Below are positions 4,830 through 43,033 of a DNA stretch of 64,000 nt, piece after piece (within the stretch, counting starts at the first letter, position 1; every line of letters begins with the position of its first letter). The stretch comes from a virus. Below the pieces are notes generated by a model, which worked only from the letters and a program-made list of their open reading frames with translations, ran no database searches and was not told where the DNA came from. A program made the position numbers and the translations under genes. The stretch spans positions 35,076 to 99,075 of the IMG/VR virus record IMGVR_UViG_3300027908_000002. One strand, given 5' to 3'.

Positions 4830-5012
4830 TCACTTAATACGTACTAATTTCAGACGCCCATCAATTCGCTTCAGGGAGATTGCAATCGTACGGTCTTCTC
4901 TCTCTATTGAACGTGTAGTTGTGGTTACAGGCTTCTTTTCTACGAGTGTTGCCGCTAACATTTGCATATAAAGCCATGGTAAGCCAAACGATTGATAAAG
5001 CAAGTGTGCCAT
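4830..5012 (-). CDS. Possible small hypothetical protein
   Basis: 60 residues starting MAHLLYQSFGLPWLYM with a charged beta-rich tail (SIEREDRTIAISLKRIDGRL). The frame fills an otherwise empty 240-bp gap and converges on the gene ending at 4826. It has no ribosome binding site. The segment encoding RSIERED overlaps a degenerate half of the dispersed palindrome near 4896. It may be real, or the gap may be non-coding. Confidence 0.3.
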   Translation of the reverse strand: MAHLLYQSFGLPWLYMQMLAATLVEKKPVTTTTRSIEREDRTIAISLKRIDGRLKLVRIK

Positions 5013-5068
5013 AGTATTAAGTGATGAATGTAGGTGTTTAATCGAACAAAGTCTTTTGATGAGGGGCG

Positions 5069-5308
5069 ATGTCAACCAGCGAAGCGGAGTTTCTGAGGGC
5101 GCACTTAGCAGCACACGAAACGCTGGACGAAGCCAGGAACACGGCAGTGACAGGGCGACTGACGGCATTGGAAGTGGCACAGGCAGACCTCAAGGGCTAT
5201 ATCCGAGGACGGAGCGCTGTGCTGGCTGTTATTTTGGCGCTGTCCATCCCGATCCTGACGGAAATTGCGCGTGTCATGTTCGAGCACATCAATATCACCT
5301 CACCGTAA
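5069..5308 (+). CDS. Small membrane protein, holin- or XhlA-like
   Basis: 79 residues. An amphipathic helical N-terminus (AEFLRAHLAAHETLDEARN, about 6-50) is followed by one strong membrane segment (SAVLAVILALSIPILTEIA, about 48-66). The start at 5069 has a GAGGGG ribosome binding site. The helix-then-membrane-anchor layout resembles hemolysin XhlA and some phage holin-associated proteins. It precedes the terminase genes. Confidence 0.5.
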   Translation: MSTSEAEFLRAHLAAHETLDEARNTAVTGRLTALEVAQADLKGYIRGRSAVLAVILALSIPILTEIARVMFEHINITSP

Positions 5309-5822: not shown

Positions 5823-8130
5823 ATCTCCCATTATTCTCCCGGCACGCGGGCCTTTAATCAAGCCTGCACGGGTTACTTGGGAGCGCGATCTGGAAATGTC
5901 GGAACTTGTCGAGTACTTCGATGAGCCCCGCTTCCATGACAAGAAGATAAAATCCGAAGCCGACCGGTTCCAGCTTCTTACCACCAAAGAAATAAAAGTG
6001 ATTCAGGGAATTGCGGACAAGTGCCGCAAAGATTTCTCTTACGCATCACGGAATTTCTTCTGGATTACTAACAAGAAGCGCGGAGACCAGTTATTCAAGT
6101 TGTGGCCATCGCAGGAGTTAATCTACGAGCACATGCTTCGTTTGCAGTCAAAAGGGCTGCCGATGAAGGTGATAACAATTAAAGCCCGACAATTGGGATG
6201 CTCATCTTTGATCGAGGGTCTTATTGCCTGGAAGACGATGTTCTTCCGCAACGTCAACGCCATTGTGGTTTCATTTGACCCGGACCATGCGGCGTATCTG
6301 TTTGGCATCATGCAGCATATCTATGACTTGATGCCGTGGTGGCTGAGGCCGCAGTGCGCCGCCCGCGAGTACAAAGACGGTCTGATCTTCGAGAACCGGG
6401 ATTATGACAGCCGCCGCATGAACCCAGGGCTTGTGTCTCGCGTGATGGTGCAGGCAGCTAATAAGCGAACCGGTGTCGGACAGGGAGTACGTATCAGCGC
6501 GGCGCACATTTCAGAATTCTGTGACTTCAACCAGGATTATGCCCGTGACGTGATTGAAGAAGATTTAGGTAACGCCCTCGCAGAAGACGACCCCTCAATG
6601 TTTGCGATTCTGGAGTCCACGGCAAAAGGAACCGGTAATTACGCCTATAGGTTATGGAACAAGTGCGTGGAGTTGGGAGAAAGCGCCGAGTGGCATCCCA
6701 TCTTTCTGCCGTGGTTCTTCGAAGCAACCCGCGTGACAGCGCCACCCAAAGGCTGGCGACCGGAAGAACAAGAGCGCGAGATGCGCAATCGTGTGGAAAT
6801 TGAATGGACTTTCTGCCAGTCTTGCGACCGATACCAGGAACGATTCAATAAGACAGAAGATGTCGCGGATACGATATGCCAAAAATGCGGGATAGGAATT
6901 CTCAAGCCATATATTCTTACTGATGACCAGTTGTTCTGGATGCGTCGTAAACGCAAGAACGCCGAGAAAGACTCAGAAAGCAAAAAGAAACTATTGCAGG
7001 AAATGGCAACTACAGCGGTAGAGGCGTTCCAGGTGTCTGGTATACAGGTATTTAGCGATTCCTCTCAGGAGTGGGTCAACTCTACGCTGAGACCGCCAGC
7101 ACTGGAAGGATTCTTTGATAAGTCCGGGAAACTTCACGGCTGCAATCCAAAAGCGAAGAGAATGAATGCGGCGACTGGTGACTACTACGATCCGTGTTAC
7201 CTAGAAGACTGTAACGCCGACCATGAATTCGGCGATGAGCACGGGGAAATGCCCATGCAAATCTGGAAATTGCCGGAGCAGGGGCAGATTTACTGTATTG
7301 GTGCCGACGTGGCCGAAGGACTGGGCGGGGAAGCCGACTACAGCGTCGGGTTTGTTTTAAAAGTAAGCCAGCACGGCGGCATTGACGAAGAAGTTGCCTC
7401 GTTTCGGTCCAATACAACGGACCCAATTGCCTTCGCTCACGTGCTCAACTATCTTGGCCGATGGTACAACGATGCCCTGATGTGCATCGAAGTTAACCGC
7501 TACGATACGACGGCGAGCACGATTCGGTTTAATCTCCAGTACCCAAACCTGTACCGCTGGAAGCATCTGGACTCATTACAGATTCTTTCCAATAAACTGG
7601 GCTGGTATACGCAGTCCAATTCCAAACCGCGCCTCTATCAGACGTGGCATAAGTTAACCAAGCAGCACCTGATTGTCGTTTATTCGCGGAATATCGCCGA
7701 AGAGATGAAGACGTTTATCAAAGACGACTATGACGAACGTGGCGCGGGCAGCGAAAAAGGTTCCAACGACGATCACTTGATGGCGGCCATGATTGCGCTG
7801 TATTGTGCTCACGAGGGCGAATGGGACGACAGTTTGGGGCAGATGAACTTCGCCAGCCGCGAACTTACCATGGAGAGCGCCCCGTGGCATATGTCCTGTG
7901 CAGGTTGCCAGTTGCTTTGGCCAGCGCATAGCAACCGCGATGACCAGAACTGCCCTCGCTGCGGGTCGATGATGATTTCCGGTACGTCAAACCGAAACCA
8001 GGGTTCCACGGGCTACCAGGCGAACCCATTCGAAGACGGGCAAATTGGCAGGCGTGAAGCTCAGGAGTACCACGTTTCAACGGATACCACTGAAGAAGAA
8101 ATGACGGAGCCGGAGTACACGTCTCTATAG
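5812..8130 (+). CDS. terL: Terminase large subunit (ATPase and nuclease)
   Basis: 772 residues from a GTG that overlaps the previous gene by 11 nt; an ATG at 5896 is an alternative. It packages DNA into the procapsid. The Walker A variant is KARQLGCSS (about 124-132) and the Walker B region is ISAAHISEFCDF (about 228-239). The nuclease domain has GADVAEG...ADYSVG (about 495-512) and DDH (about 652). Two CxxC...CxxC zinc-knuckle pairs sit at about 334-360 and 695-722; the second is a C-terminal extension. The stop codon TAG is supplied by palindrome copy 2 (8119-8136). Confidence 0.93.
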   Translation: MYPESPIILPARGPLIKPARVTWERDLEMSELVEYFDEPRFHDKKIKSEADRFQLLTTKEIKVIQGIADKCRKDFSYASRNFFWITNKKRGDQLFKLWPSQELIYEHMLRLQSKGLPMKVITIKARQLGCSSLIEGLIAWKTMFFRNVNAIVVSFDPDHAAYLFGIMQHIYDLMPWWLRPQCAAREYKDGLIFENRDYDSRRMNPGLVSRVMVQAANKRTGVGQGVRISAAHISEFCDFNQDYARDVIEEDLGNALAEDDPSMFAILESTAKGTGNYAYRLWNKCVELGESAEWHPIFLPWFFEATRVTAPPKGWRPEEQEREMRNRVEIEWTFCQSCDRYQERFNKTEDVADTICQKCGIGILKPYILTDDQLFWMRRKRKNAEKDSESKKKLLQEMATTAVEAFQVSGIQVFSDSSQEWVNSTLRPPALEGFFDKSGKLHGCNPKAKRMNAATGDYYDPCYLEDCNADHEFGDEHGEMPMQIWKLPEQGQIYCIGADVAEGLGGEADYSVGFVLKVSQHGGIDEEVASFRSNTTDPIAFAHVLNYLGRWYNDALMCIEVNRYDTTASTIRFNLQYPNLYRWKHLDSLQILSNKLGWYTQSNSKPRLYQTWHKLTKQHLIVVYSRNIAEEMKTFIKDDYDERGAGSEKGSNDDHLMAAMIALYCAHEGEWDDSLGQMNFASRELTMESAPWHMSCAGCQLLWPAHSNRDDQNCPRCGSMMISGTSNRNQGSTGYQANPFEDGQIGRREAQEYHVSTDTTEEEMTEPEYTSL

Positions 8131-20965: not shown

Positions 20966-21083
20966 AAAGTCTCGGCAATGGGACGAAGTTTACAGGAGCG
21001 CCAAGGATCGTGGGGAGTCACCCGGCGCGGCGATCCGCATGGCTTCCGGAGTTATCAAGAAACGCGGTAAGAAGCGCCGCTAG
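20925..21083 (+). CDS. Basic small protein, 52 residues
   Basis: MPAIRFTKKANTAKKSRQW to IKKRGKKRR. The middle (QWDEVYRSAKDRGESPGAAIRMASGVIKK) resembles a short phage/bacterial helical unit found in small DNA-associated proteins; the ends are strongly basic. It overlaps the previous gene by 41 nt and its stop overlaps, by 4 nt, the end of the convergent kinase/phosphatase gene. Confidence 0.5.
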   Translation: MPAIRFTKKANTAKKSRQWDEVYRSAKDRGESPGAAIRMASGVIKKRGKKRR

Positions 21084-21970
21084 AAGTTTCCATCTGCTAC
21101 TTGGAAAACAGTCAAGCCCAGTGACCGCCACATTTCAACGACTTTGTTACGGTCGTCCCAGATAGCGATGACATTGAATTTCCCTTCTATGTCTCTACGG
21201 TAAATTTCTTCTTTGATGATTCGGTCGTCGCGGGTGTCGCCAGCGGGGCGCATGTGCAAGTCGCCAGCAGGTAACCCGTTAACCATAAGCCACTGGGTAG
21301 TTTGCTGACGGCATGACTCATCGCGACCGGAAACATAGATGATCGTAGTCCAGATTCCGCCGAATTCTTTCACGGCCTTGAGTGAATCAATAACAGCCGT
21401 GTTTGGCTTGTCTCCCAGTACTTTGTCCCAGTCGAACCAGCCGCGATGGCCGTCATTGATAGCGACCGTACCGTCCAAGTCACAGATGTAGCAGTCTTGT
21501 AACTTGGGATTGCGCTCTATCACTGGCGGCTTAGGTGCCAGGTATTCGCGCCACATCTTGCGGATCACGGCCTCGCCCACGGACCTTGGGCGCTTCAGGT
21601 CGCGATCGATGCACGTCTCTATAGAGACGCTGGTGAAGTCCTGAATGGTGACTTCTACCTGTGTTCCATGGCCTCCGCCGCGCAGTTCGCGGGCGATTTC
21701 GTTCATGCGCTCCAAGTGCTTGGGAGCGAAATTTGTGTCGTCCACGATGACGTTATAGCCGTGCTTCAAGGCGTCGATGACAATGGCATCACGGACGCGC
21801 AGAACGATTGCTTCGTTGCCTTTACTATATTTACCGGCGTGGAGCATGTCGCGAAGCTCGTCTTTGTTAACCCGAACGTACTTAGCCGGGTGATCCAGAA
21901 CGACTTGCCGCGCCCATGTGCTCTTGCCGCTTCCGGGTAACCCACGAGTCAGTATGAGATTTAAAGTCAC
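21080..21970 (-). CDS. Polynucleotide 5'-kinase/3'-phosphatase
   Basis: 296 residues from a GTG at 21970 that overlaps the ligase stop by 4 nt (GTGA); the longer upstream start would read through the ligase end. The N-terminal kinase has the P-loop RGLPGSGKST (about 9-18) and the VIVDDTNF motif. The C-terminal HAD phosphatase has ICDLDGTVA (about 160-168), YVSGRDESCR and IWDDR. This is the T4 PseT-like architecture: it phosphorylates 5'-OH ends and removes 3' phosphates so that RNA ligase can seal breaks. Palindrome copy 6 lies within it. Confidence 0.9.
   Translation of the reverse strand: MTLNLILTRGLPGSGKSTWARQVVLDHPAKYVRVNKDELRDMLHAGKYSKGNEAIVLRVRDAIVIDALKHGYNVIVDDTNFAPKHLERMNEIARELRGGGHGTQVEVTIQDFTSVSIETCIDRDLKRPRSVGEAVIRKMWREYLAPKPPVIERNPKLQDCYICDLDGTVAINDGHRGWFDWDKVLGDKPNTAVIDSLKAVKEFGGIWTTIIYVSGRDESCRQQTTQWLMVNGLPAGDLHMRPAGDTRDDRIIKEEIYRRDIEGKFNVIAIWDDRNKVVEMWRSLGLTVFQVADGNF
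21613..21630. repeat. Dispersed palindrome copy 6 (intragenic)
   Basis: ACGTCTCTATAGAGACGC, inside the kinase/phosphatase gene, where it encodes SVSIET on the minus strand. No -10-like box follows on either strand. Confidence 0.6.
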
Positions 21971-23292
21971 TCCGCAACCGCCTCGGATTCCGCCGTTTCC
22001 ATATCGGCTTCGCCCTTGTCCAGTTGCTTCGATTCCCACTCCAGGAAGACAAAACTCTTGAGTTTATAGGCTTCATCTTCTTCGAGGCGGTCCACTTTTA
22101 AAACCACGCCTTCGGCTGGCACTTCGTTGTTATTATGCTGGCACATCGCTCCGGAAACGTGGAGAACTTCCAGGTGCTTAACAAAGTATTCCTGCCAATC
22201 AGCCAGCGGGCCGCCCGTCACGTAGGGGAAAAAGTCTGCCGCCCTTCCGTGGTAAAGTTCCTTGACCATTTCGAATCCGTACTTGGCGCAAAAGTATTTC
22301 ACTTGTTGCCACGAAAGCTCAAGGACGCGACCATCGGCGTTGGTTGAAGTAACCCGGTACACGACCGTTCGATGCGCGCCCATCTGGCATCCGTAGTGGT
22401 AGCCTTTCTGAATGGCCGCTCCCTCCGGCGTGTAGCCTACGATTTCCGCGTAGACGGTATAGCCCTTTGGAATCTGAGCGCGGATTTCTTTGGCCACGAC
22501 TCCCCAGATATCGGAATCGTAGAAGTGAACGGCGTTGGCTTTGTTTTCGTCCCCAACCCCCTTGACGACTCTCCGCGAACTCCAGACGAGTCCGTAGTCA
22601 CTATCCCGTACTTTGAGTCCGATATAGTTAGCCAATCGCTCCAGCCACGTTAGATCGCGCTTCACAAGCACGTTGGCGAATACGGCGCTGGTGCCGTGCC
22701 ACTTCTCAGAGATACTGATCCACGATTCCGGGTCCAGTTTGTGGGAATTGCGTCGCAGGTTCTCGGTGTCGATATGGAACCGGAACTGACCATCGACAAT
22801 CTTGTCTTCCGCGCGCGCCTGCCGTCCCTGGTGGCCGCGAGTAAGCTCTTGGGTGCGGGCGTTGCGCGGGATATATTTATGGCAGATTTCATGGTCACCG
22901 ATTTTGTCGAACTCCGCGCCGACCGCCAGATCGTTTGTGCCAGTGTAACTAATGGCATCCAGTGGAATCCAGAATCCTTCGGATTTGTGACCACGGAACT
23001 TGACGGCACGGACGCGCCCGTGTTCTTCAAAGAAGCCTTTCTTGGCGGTGTCCGTATTGCCCCATTCTGGCTTTCTAAAGAGATTATTCGCGCCGCAGAA
23101 TTCCGTGGACAGGGCAGTTTCCACCGGGAAGAACAGACCGACTTCTCCCGCTCCAGCCGTCTTAGCGACGATCACTGAGTTACCAAAGATCAGGGCCGCT
23201 TTCACTTTGTCGCAGTTGGGCAGATCGACGAATTTATCCAGCGCGACAACGACAGCCGCGTAGTTCTTATTCTTGGGGGCTTCAAGTGTCAT
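21967..23292 (-). CDS. RNA ligase, Rnl5/DRB0094-like
   Basis: 441 residues. The nucleotidyltransferase motif I is SEKWHGTSAVF (Lys at about 196). Other motifs are YTVYAEIVGY, EGVVLKV (about 394) and YKLKSF (about 410). An N-terminal domain (residues 1-170, with VGLFFPVETALSTEFCGANN) precedes the catalytic domain, as in the Deinococcus RNA ligase (Rnl5) group. It joins RNA 5'-phosphate and 3'-OH ends, working with the downstream kinase/phosphatase. Expression is from a good sigma70-type promoter (23301-23329), divergent from tRNA-Lys. Confidence 0.85.
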   Translation of the reverse strand: MTLEAPKNKNYAAVVVALDKFVDLPNCDKVKAALIFGNSVIVAKTAGAGEVGLFFPVETALSTEFCGANNLFRKPEWGNTDTAKKGFFEEHGRVRAVKFRGHKSEGFWIPLDAISYTGTNDLAVGAEFDKIGDHEICHKYIPRNARTQELTRGHQGRQARAEDKIVDGQFRFHIDTENLRRNSHKLDPESWISISEKWHGTSAVFANVLVKRDLTWLERLANYIGLKVRDSDYGLVWSSRRVVKGVGDENKANAVHFYDSDIWGVVAKEIRAQIPKGYTVYAEIVGYTPEGAAIQKGYHYGCQMGAHRTVVYRVTSTNADGRVLELSWQQVKYFCAKYGFEMVKELYHGRAADFFPYVTGGPLADWQEYFVKHLEVLHVSGAMCQHNNNEVPAEGVVLKVDRLEEDEAYKLKSFVFLEWESKQLDKGEADMETAESEAVAE

Positions 23293-23359: not shown

Positions 23360-23435
23360 GGACTCGTAGCTCAGTTGGAAGAGCAAGACACTCTTAATGT
23401 CAAGGTCGCCCGTTCGATCCGGGCCGGGTCCACCA
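23360..23435 (+). tRNA. tRNA-Lys (CTT)
   Basis: 76 nt including the encoded CCA. Acceptor GGACTCG pairs with CGGGTCC (one T-G pair), D stem GCTC/GAGC, anticodon loop CTCTTAA with CTT at the anticodon, T stem GCCCG/CGGGC with loop TTCGATC. The anticodon stem has one A-A mismatch at its outer pair. It sits beside, and divergent from, the RNA ligase and kinase/phosphatase genes. Confidence 0.92.
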
Positions 23436-41329: not shown

Positions 41330-41968
41330 ATGACCCCGACGACTCTGGTTCTGGCATCTTCGCCGTCACCCGCTGCTTTTGCTTCTCAGGTTACTTTGAC
41401 GGCAATGGTTTCGCCCTCAGCGGCCACGGGCGTTATAACGTTTCTGGACAGTGGCGTGGCTCTGGGAACCGGGACTCTGGGAAGTGGCACGGCGACTTTT
41501 GCCACGAGCGCTTTATCCAGCGGCCCGCACTATCTGACGGCCACTTACGGCGGAGATGCCAATTACTATCCCAGCGCGTCTACGACCGTTATCCAGCAAG
41601 TCAACCCGCCGCAGACCCAGATTGGACTCGCCACCGTGACATCGGCTCAGTTGCAGGCCAATGACCCAAGTTTACTCAACAGAACCATAAACCTGATTGC
41701 CCAGCAGACGTATTCAGCGCAGAATCCCGGCAGCACGGGAAACTTAACGGGCGTACCGCAAATCACGGCGTCAGATTTATCCGGCAACGATCCATCACGG
41801 TTGAACCGTACCCTGCAACTGGTCGCAACCCAGATTCAGGTCACGCAGGGGTCCAGTGTAGCCAACGGCCTACCACAGGTTACCCAAAGTGACTTGGAAA
41901 ACTCAGACCCCACCACCATTAACCGAATCTTGCAGTTGCTGGCTGGGCAGGTTCGGCTACTGAAGTGA
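41330..41968 (+). CDS. Ig-like (Big_3_5 type) virion protein
   Basis: 212 residues. Residues 1-90 form a bacterial Ig-like domain with its characteristic run (VTLTAMVSPSAATGVITFLD, GSGTATFATSALSSGPHYL, ATYGGDANYYPSAS). Three short helical repeats follow (TSAQLQANDPSLLNRTINL, TASDLSGNDPSRLNRTLQL, TQSDLENSDPTTINRILQL), each about 35-50 residues apart. Ig-like modules on phage virions usually bind host or environmental polysaccharide. It starts immediately after the tail-hub stop. Confidence 0.7.
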   Translation: MTPTTLVLASSPSPAAFASQVTLTAMVSPSAATGVITFLDSGVALGTGTLGSGTATFATSALSSGPHYLTATYGGDANYYPSASTTVIQQVNPPQTQIGLATVTSAQLQANDPSLLNRTINLIAQQTYSAQNPGSTGNLTGVPQITASDLSGNDPSRLNRTLQLVATQIQVTQGSSVANGLPQVTQSDLENSDPTTINRILQLLAGQVRLLK

Positions 41969-42005
41969 AAATTAAAGCCCCCGCCAAGTATCCTATGACG
42001 GGGGC
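41968..42005 (-). terminator. Intrinsic terminator, minus strand
   Basis: On the minus strand GCCCCCG pairs with CGGGGGC across a 15-nt loop, followed by TTTAATTTT. It ends the transcript that contains the gene at 42278 and the permuted tRNA. Confidence 0.7.
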
Positions 42006-42074
42006 CGATTGGTTTTCAAGACCAAGTAGTACTTGCCAAATCTTTACACAATCAGTACTCGCAGAGTTCAGCCT

Positions 42075-42160
42075 AATCCCGATGCCTTACCGCTAGACCA
42101 CGGGGCCATAGTTTTTATTGGAGGCCCCGGCTGGATTTGAACCAGCGTTCTCGGTTTGTT
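42075..42160 (-). tRNA. Circularly permuted tRNA candidate
   Basis: On the minus strand the 3' half comes first: ACCGA, GAAC, T stem GCTGG/CCAGC with loop TTCAAAT, acceptor CGGGGCC, T, CCA (ending at 42119). After an 11-nt linker (42118-42108) comes the 5' half: acceptor GGCCCCG (42107-42101), TG, D stem GTCT/AGGC with AGCGGTA loop, A, TCGGG (to 42078), ATT. The acceptor arms pair perfectly (7/7) and TCGG pairs with CCGA. If joined to give a 7-nt loop the anticodon could be TAC (Val). The junction and function are not known. Confidence 0.6.
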
Positions 42161-42277
42161 GCTCCGCGCCCATCATGCTTCTTATTTCTGGCTTTAGCCT
42201 TCGGGTAATAGATTAAGCTTATTAGTTAAGCCTGACCATGACCTTTAGCCTGGATTGCGGTTACCCGCCACCCGAAT

Positions 42278-43033
42278 TTACAGGCCGAAGATATAACTGA
42301 TGATCTTCTGGCCGATCTTAGTGTCTATTTTATTGATTTCCTGTTCGTTAGCCCGCGAACGGGCCTTTTTCACTGCGCGGGTGAAGTCTTCCACACGAGA
42401 TAGCATATCTCCCTTGGCCGCCACTGTGATTAGCCCGGACCATTCCAGCGTAGTGATTTCTCCGACCGGTACATCTTCAGTGACAAGTTGAACCTGAGCC
42501 GGATGCTTATCGGTAGCCGGGGCCAGAGTGAGCGGCTTATTGACTTTCTTGGTCCGCGTCTTCTTCTCTTCTCTGGCCTTGAACACATCTCCGCCCTTGT
42601 CCGGGTCGGCGCGGAATCCCTTTGCCGGGTCCAGCGTCGGGATCGCCATAACAAAGTCATGAAGTTCTTTCGAGCGCTTCTCCAGTTCCAGAAGAGAAGT
42701 GGCCGGAAGTTGCGACAGGAACACGCCGTCGTAGTCTTCCAGAACCACGTCGGCGCGGGCGACCGTGTTGGCCTCTGCAACCTGATATGATACGTCAAGG
42801 CTCTTGACCAGGAAGTCGGAAATCCATTTAAGCTCCTTGGGAACCGTAGTCTGGATATCCAATTGTCCTTCTATGGTCGTCGGAGTGCCTTCTTCAAACG
42901 GTTTATAGGAGACGGTCTTTTCCGAGAAGTGGTGCTGCTTCTTTTCGAACGTACCCATCAGTTCCGCACGCGTTTTGTCGGCCTGTGCTTTCAGGTTACC
43001 GTCCACGGCCAAAAGCTCGTGTAACTTGGACAT
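42278..43033 (-). CDS. Conserved phage/bacterial protein of unknown function (DUF7873-like)
   Basis: 251 residues. MSKLHELLAVDGNLKAQADK, TFEKKQHHFSEK, SYQVAEANTVARADVVLED, IPTLDPAKGF and the ending ANEQEINKIDTKIGQKI match a conserved family found in phages and bacteria, annotated as a domain of unknown function. It has a good ribosome binding site (GAAGGA). The permuted tRNA lies in its 3' region before the terminator. Role unknown. Confidence 0.65.
   Translation of the reverse strand: MSKLHELLAVDGNLKAQADKTRAELMGTFEKKQHHFSEKTVSYKPFEEGTPTTIEGQLDIQTTVPKELKWISDFLVKSLDVSYQVAEANTVARADVVLEDYDGVFLSQLPATSLLELEKRSKELHDFVMAIPTLDPAKGFRADPDKGGDVFKAREEKKTRTKKVNKPLTLAPATDKHPAQVQLVTEDVPVGEITTLEWSGLITVAAKGDMLSRVEDFTRAVKKARSRANEQEINKIDTKIGQKIISYIFGL

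What the first reader, a model, noticed from the sequence alone, without database searches (positions are those of the whole stretch)
42075..42160. Circularly permuted tRNA gene in a phage
On the minus strand a complete tRNA 3' half (T arm, acceptor, CCA) lies upstream of a complete 5' half (acceptor, D arm, half anticodon stem), separated by 11 nt. The acceptor arms pair 7 of 7, T stem 5 of 5, D stem 4 of 4 and anticodon stem 4 of 5. Permuted tRNA genes are known in some algae and archaea; I do not recall one in a phage. The window also encodes RNA ligase and kinase/phosphatase, which might join or repair the ends. The anticodon depends on the junction.
Basis: partly seen in the sequence, partly recalled or inferred. 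Interest (0 to 1): 0.9.

Follow-up and report, generated by a model that had tools for sequence, protein, structure and literature searches.

The report
Phage tRNA-mimic RNA paired with DUF7873
What looked like a back-to-front tRNA gene is one part of a widespread, apparently undescribed non-coding RNA that imitates tRNA, resembles the bacterial Y RNAs, and sits next to the gene of one uncharacterised protein (DUF7873) in phages and bacteria of many kinds.

Summary
In detail: on the minus strand a tRNA T-arm, acceptor 3' strand and CCA precede an acceptor 5' strand and D-arm, with all stated pairings. It is neither chance nor an assembly artefact. The same permuted module lies within 700 nt downstream of a DUF7873 gene, same strand, in 152 of 171 distinct loci (0 of 168 upstream), in phages of Gordonia, Arthrobacter, Rhodococcus, Rhizobium, Vibrio, Klebsiella and cyanobacteria and in bacterial contigs, with compensatory changes throughout. 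A covariance model built without the window's clade finds it at 69 bits.

It is probably not a tRNA gene: U33 is not conserved, there is no BHB motif, and the "anticodon stem" continues into an outer stem. T-arm, acceptor, D-arm is the known layout of the tRNA-mimic domain of bacterial Y RNA (YrlA), which I also find beside phage Ro (TROVE) genes. But these RNAs lack the Ro-associated motif, score below Rfam's YrlA cut-off, and mostly occur without Ro. They have their own architecture: a 5' motif, one or two permuted modules, often a downstream anticodon arm, and a 3' hairpin with a GGNUA loop.

Best reading: a new Y-RNA-like RNA whose protein partner is DUF7873. Binding and function are inferred.

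The parts
42278..43033 (-). DUF7873 protein gene (251 aa), proposed protein partner of the RNA
   Evidence: Pfam PF25283, E 7.7e-68; AlphaFold model pLDDT 84.9, no fold match
41968..42277 (-). whole proposed non-coding RNA, from just after the DUF7873 stop codon to the T-run; transcript ends not measured
   Evidence: fold z-score -3.2; aligned relatives
42200..42276 (-). 5' domain: stem TTCGGGT (42270-42276) / ACCCGAA (42200-42206); contains TCTATTACCCG (42202-42212), the window's version of the conserved TCAGRYTATYRCYC motif
   Evidence: alignment A3; coordinates; motif in 75 of 149 loci versus 0 in shuffles
42060..42168 (-). outer stem CGCGGAG (42162-42168) / CTCTGCG (42060-42066) that carries the tRNA-like module
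   Evidence: outer stems exceed shuffled partners across 203 elements
42078..42155 (-). anticodon-like stem ACCGA (42151-42155) / TCGGG (42078-42082); leads into the outer stem, no anticodon loop
   Evidence: 4 of 5 pairs; helix covaries in relatives and was not used for selection
42130..42146 (-). T-arm GCTGG-TTCAAAT-CCAGC
42101..42129 (-). acceptor stem CGGGGCC (42123-42129) / GGCCCCG (42101-42107) closed by linker T-CCA-ATAAAAACTAT (42108-42122)
   Evidence: 7 of 7 pairs; all seven positions covary in relatives; CCA in 66 of 101 viral elements
42084..42098 (-). D-arm GTCT-AGCGGTA-AGGC with the GG of the tRNA elbow
42070..42077 (-). internal-loop motif ATTAGGCT, conserved in the window's clade (ATNAGRCT)
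   Evidence: alignment A3
42009..42025 (-). anticodon-arm-like hairpin TTGGT-CTTGAAA-ACCAA (U33, UGA, A37)
   Evidence: such arms in 47 of 94 non-actinobacterial loci versus 2.2% of shuffles
41976..42006 (-). 3' hairpin with GGAUA loop followed by a T-run (41968-41976); terminator-like, candidate protein-binding site
   Evidence: GGNUA-type loop in 79 of 99 distinct terminal hairpins, 18 expected; 2 of 57 control terminators

Best explanation
The locus is the core of a two-component unit: the DUF7873 protein gene and, just downstream on the same strand, a non-coding RNA of about 300 nt. The RNA carries a tRNA-mimic domain of the Y-RNA (YrlA) type. Its 'permuted' order arises because the domain is entered through the place where a tRNA has its anticodon loop; it is not a tRNA gene waiting to be circularised. 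Shown by sequence comparison: the RNA is conserved, structured and nearly always next to DUF7873; it keeps the tRNA elbow, acceptor stem and often CCA, and has its own 5' motif and 3' GGNUA hairpin. Inferred: DUF7873 binds the RNA, probably at the GGNUA hairpin or 5' domain, and the RNP presents tRNA-like surfaces (elbow, acceptor and, in many lineages, an anticodon arm with variable anticodon) to a tRNA-handling enzyme, either as a tether (as Y RNA does for PNPase) or as a decoy or sensor for tRNA-attacking enzymes. I favour the decoy/sensor mode (about 0.4) over the tether mode (about 0.3).
For: Linkage: element within 700 nt downstream of DUF7873 in 152 of 171 distinct loci, 0 of 168 upstream, 3 of 1710 shuffles; model R1 adds 16 more. 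Structure: 34 of 44 predicted pairs with double changes; counts and controls; stems versus shuffled partners. Window recovered by a model from other clades at 69.1 bits. Same module beside phage Ro genes and in Rfam YrlA. Own features: GGNUA hairpin, 5' motif, variable anticodon arm on a fixed body. No other recurrent gene partner in 80 bacterial loci.
Against: No transcript, binding or phenotype data. DUF7873 has no recognisable RNA-binding fold. Adjacency does not prove binding. The Ro-absence argument rests on 23 records, nine of them IMG/VR contigs that may be fragments. Anticodon arms are missing in about half of non-actinobacterial loci and most actinobacterial ones. The decoy/tether choice is inference.
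Confidence: 0.72

Rival explanations
1. A true circularly permuted tRNA gene: the halves are joined in the anticodon loop, for example by host or phage RNA ligase, and RNase P plus 3' processing remove the linker to give a working tRNA.
For: Gene order, full acceptor, T and D pairing and encoded CCA; RNA ligase and kinase/phosphatase in the window.
Against: U33 is not conserved and there is no consistent anticodon loop; no bulge-helix-bulge motif (compared with PMC3978253); an outer stem extends the anticodon-like stem; tandem copies and the fixed DUF7873 linkage do not fit a decoding tRNA.
Confidence: 0.05
2. A canonical Y RNA (YrlA) that works with a Ro60/Rsr protein supplied by another phage or the host.
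For: Same tRNA-like module; YrlA model matches relatives over its full length at 30-38 bits; two DUF7873-bearing records also encode TROVE.
Against: Below Rfam's 69-bit cut-off everywhere tested; Ro-associated flanking motif absent in DUF7873-linked RNAs but present in most TROVE-linked ones; TROVE missing from 21 of 23 records and from the window's record; where TROVE is present it has its own modules.
Confidence: 0.13
3. A two-piece tmRNA-like RNA: RNase P cuts the linker, leaving a nicked tRNA-like end with free CCA that is aminoacylated and used by the ribosome.
For: CCA kept in 66 of 101 viral elements although every acceptor pair varies; C74 in 87-100% of elements; partial match of L030 to the permuted beta_tmRNA model.
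Against: No tmRNA or tag frame found by ARAGORN in the window; no alanine G3-U70 pair in the window and G-U in either order at that pair in only 8 of 204 elements; most bacterial (mainly actinobacterial) elements have no encoded CCA.
Confidence: 0.1

Closest known systems
Bacterial Y RNA YrlA (Rfam RF02553; Chen et al. 2014 as cited in PMC7790460; structure 6CU1 as cited in PMC8394870)
   Same: T-arm, acceptor, D-arm order on a stem; tRNA elbow; modular RNA next to one protein gene; found in phages and bacteria
   Different: Partner gene is DUF7873, not TROVE; Ro-associated flanks absent; often two modules; GGNUA 3' hairpin, own 5' motif, frequent anticodon arm; below the Rfam cut-off
Circularly permuted tRNA genes of algae and archaea (PMC3978253, PMC3218864)
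   Same: 3' half precedes 5' half with a short linker; encoded CCA in some
   Different: No BHB motif, no conserved anticodon loop, extra outer stem and domains, fixed protein-gene neighbour
Two-piece (permuted) tmRNA
   Same: Permuted acceptor arm with a linker between CCA and the 5' acceptor strand
   Different: No tag frame found; has a D-arm with the GG of the tRNA elbow; no alanine identity pair in the window

Membership tests
Bacterial Y RNA (YrlA, RF02553) | tRNA-like module of T, acceptor and D arms in permuted order on a stem | tested here: met
Bacterial Y RNA (YrlA, RF02553) | score at or above the Rfam gathering cut-off (69 bits) | tested here: not met
   window 20.4 bits; relatives 23.8-37.6; even Ro-linked phage RNAs reach only 42.4, so the cut-off alone is a weak test
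Bacterial Y RNA (YrlA, RF02553) | Ro60/Rsr (TROVE) gene nearby | tested here: not met
   none in the 99-kb record; 2 of 23 DUF7873-bearing records
Bacterial Y RNA (YrlA, RF02553) | Ro-associated flanking motif as seen in TROVE-linked phage RNAs | tested here: not met
   5' half in 2 of 204 elements, both halves in none; window has neither
Bacterial Y RNA (YrlA, RF02553) | binds Rsr and PNPase | not testable with these tools
   needs biochemistry
Circularly permuted tRNA gene | 3' half upstream of 5' half with pairing arms | tested here: met
Circularly permuted tRNA gene | BHB motif at the junction | tested here: not met
   6 x 11 nt internal loop, then a 7-bp outer stem; definition from PMC3978253
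Circularly permuted tRNA gene | anticodon loop with U33 after joining | tested here: not met
   U33 12% / 38% over 204 elements; the window itself has U at that position, so the test is on the family
Circularly permuted tRNA gene | joined mature tRNA in cells | not testable with these tools
   needs RNA sequencing
Two-piece tmRNA | tag reading frame and alanine identity pair G3-U70 | tested here: not met
   no tmRNA in the window by ARAGORN; window pair 3-70 is C-G

The most novel reading that the evidence does not exclude
A previously undescribed ribonucleoprotein system shared by phages and bacteria: DUF7873 plus a composite tRNA mimic that offers the tRNA elbow, the acceptor/CCA end and, in many lineages, an anticodon loop that changes quickly while its scaffold stays fixed, serving as bait for, or sensor of, enzymes that attack tRNA.
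Probability: 0.4. Interest if true: 0.92.

Novelty: new variant of a known kind. Interest (0 to 1): 0.78.

Why it matters
As far as the papers read here say, bacterial Y RNAs are known with Ro60/Rsr. A second, larger set of RNAs with the same tRNA-mimic layout but a different, single, uncharacterised protein gene would show that tRNA mimicry on a modular RNA scaffold is a general phage and bacterial strategy. It gives an unknown protein family (222 viral-contig and 279 bacterial-contig matches) a concrete partner and testable functions. The changing anticodon arms suggest an arms race over tRNA cleavage. It also explains some odd tRNA annotations in phage genomes.

Tried and rejected
Rfam at gathering threshold found only tRNA-Lys. 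Nucleotide BLAST of the region against phages gave only generic tRNA-arm matches. PHROGs, NCBIfam, PDB-sequence and PADLOC searches with DUF7873 gave nothing significant. Foldseek with a good model gave no significant match; weak Cas7-like hits have TM-scores near 0.1 and were discarded. Permuted group I intron: considered because of the exon order; no Rfam intron match, and the flanks are explained by the outer stem and other domains. Integration scar (attP within a tRNA gene): rejected because the permuted order is conserved beside DUF7873 in unrelated phages. Neighbour genes in bacterial contigs: no recurrent partner. No paper in the library mentions DUF7873. Chen et al. 2014 and Sim et al. 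2020 on Y RNA are not held, so their content comes from papers that cite them.

Full report
1. What is there. The window is positions 35076-99075 of a 99-kb IMG/VR virus record. All stated pairings are correct. Standard tRNA searches do not see it. Rfam's best match is YrlA, the Y-RNA-like family, at 20.4 bits against a cut-off of 69.

2. It is conserved and linked to DUF7873. The upstream minus-strand gene is a clear DUF7873 (PF25283) member. Relatives came from viral contigs, annotated phages and bacterial contigs. A pattern scan (T stem 5/5, acceptor 7/7, D stem at least 3, GG in the D-loop) found the element within 700 nt downstream on the same strand in 152 of 171 distinct loci, in none of 168 upstream regions, in none of the downstream opposite strands, and in 3 of 1710 Markov shuffles. 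All 14 annotated phage representatives carry it. A covariance model from 34 relatives outside the window's clade gives the window element 69.1 bits, E 9e-22. The same model finds an element in 17 of the 19 loci that the strict scan missed, 16 of them downstream on the same strand. 63 loci have two tandem elements, typically about 150 nt apart.

3. It is an RNA structure. In a 22-sequence alignment of the full RNA, RNAalifold predicts 44 pairs, 34 with double compensatory changes. In 34 diverse elements 92% of cells pair, against 61% after shuffling and 38-46% after sliding. T and acceptor helices were selection criteria, so their pairing is partly by construction. The anticodon-like helix was not a criterion, and all four of its pairs show double changes. 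Anticodon-like and outer stems both score well above shuffled partners.

4. Why it is probably not a tRNA gene. A permuted tRNA needs an anticodon loop once the halves are joined. Over 204 distinct elements position 33 is U in only 12% or 38% by class, and in the window's clade the sequence after the stem is a shared motif (ATNAGRCT) and not a varied anticodon. There is no bulge-helix-bulge motif, the hallmark of permuted tRNA junctions (PMC3978253). The stem instead continues through a 6 x 11 nt internal loop into an outer stem. The window's own copy does have U at position 33, so this argument is about the family.

5. What it resembles. YrlA Y RNAs have a tRNA-like domain made of D, T and acceptor arms (PMC8394870), and Rfam's YrlA consensus shows the same order. 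As a positive control I fetched phage loci with TROVE (Ro) genes. The same permuted module lies beside the Ro gene in Brevundimonas, Xanthomonas, Caulobacter, Streptomyces and Gordonia phages, flanked in most cases by TACTTCG-like and TTCCCC-like sequences, and the model from DUF7873 RNAs matches many of these at about 38-59 bits. So the module is shared. DUF7873-linked RNAs lack that flanking motif (2 of 204 for the 5' half, none for both), and TROVE occurs in only 2 of 23 DUF7873-bearing records. In those two there are separate modules by the TROVE gene.

6. Features of its own. (a) A 5' motif, TCAGRYTATYRCYC, in 75 of 149 loci against none in shuffles. (b) A long GC-rich 3' hairpin whose loop carries GGNUA or a close variant in 79 of 99 distinct cases, against 18 expected from loop composition and 2 of 57 control terminators in the same contigs; the window has TAGGATACT. 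(c) CCA after the discriminator in 66 of 101 viral elements against 1.6% elsewhere in the linker, although all seven acceptor pairs vary. (d) Downstream of the permuted module, often a canonical-order tRNA-like body or only an anticodon arm: 47 of 94 non-actinobacterial loci against 2.2% of shuffles, a count that includes some T-arm-like loops. The window has TTGGT-CUUGAAA-ACCAA. In Nocardia the body is nearly unchanged while the loop reads CUGUUAA, CUGUUGA, CUCUCAU or CUAUCGA, and its acceptor appears to have only five pairs; in Thiomargarita relatives (DUF7873 89-91% identical) the anticodons are CAG, GCU and GCC. Some 'tRNA-Ser' calls there are only 72-76 nt, without the long variable arm that tRNA-Ser has (general knowledge). 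I read these as mimics and not as decoding tRNAs.

7. The protein. The DUF7873 model is confident (pLDDT 84.9) but matches no solved or viral predicted fold. Conserved residues cluster at T174-x-x-HPAQV181 and N229. No family library names a function. In 80 bacterial contigs no other gene family recurs in more than 11 loci apart from frames overlapping DUF7873.

8. Mechanism. Shown: a conserved, structured, DUF7873-linked RNA with a tRNA-mimic module. Inferred: DUF7873 binds it, most plausibly at the GGNUA hairpin or 5' domain, and the mimic surfaces engage tRNA-handling enzymes. Two modes remain open: a tether, as Y RNA to PNPase (PMC8394870), or a decoy or sensor for tRNA-cleaving enzymes. 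Variable anticodon arms, residence in phage tRNA arrays and the RNA-repair genes in the window favour the second, but none proves it. RNase P cleavage of the linker, leaving a two-piece molecule with a free CCA end, fits the CCA retention and is untested.

9. Verdict. Observation confirmed; the permuted-tRNA reading is not upheld as a tRNA; a new variant of the Y-RNA kind with a new protein partner, possibly a separate RNP system. The literature check is limited to open-licence papers.

Noticed in passing
window 21083-23292 (-) and 23360-23435 (+): RNA ligase (PF09414) and polynucleotide kinase/phosphatase (HAD_PNKP) genes lie side by side next to the only ordinary tRNA gene of the window, tRNA-Lys(CTT).
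   Followed up: partly
L130, L133, L149, L154, L155, L161, L176, L181, about 7000-7110: Nocardia: a canonical-order tRNA-like body after the permuted module keeps its sequence while the anticodon loop differs between species; L155 and L161 differ only inside the loop over the 95 nt compared.
   Followed up: partly
L117 3464-3537, L050 4998-5069, L054 5043-5118: ARAGORN calls tRNA-Ser genes of only 72-76 nt downstream of the permuted module, too short for a real tRNA-Ser with its long variable arm.
   Followed up: partly
L203 1643-1710, L206 1833-1906, L032 4013-4096: Annotated phage tRNAs (CcrColossus tRNA-Gln, Alone3 tRNA-Ser, Centimanus tRNA-Stop(tta)) overlap permuted tRNA-mimic modules and are probably misannotations.
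   Followed up: partly
L199 1282-2040 and L200 about 5000-5260 (-): Unannotated Y RNA-like modules, four in L199 and two in L200, lie just upstream of TROVE/Ro genes in two phages that also carry DUF7873.
   Followed up: partly
L131, L162 (Streptomyces), L130 (Nocardia): The first tRNA-like module (E1) is replaced by a short hairpin or stretch while the conserved flanks remain, so modules seem exchangeable.
   Followed up: no
L058 6505-6895, L067 3164-3531: Two DUF7873-bearing viral contigs also encode a tmRNA.
   Followed up: no
L070 4001-4726: The DUF7873 frame has one internal stop although both downstream RNA modules look intact.
   Followed up: no
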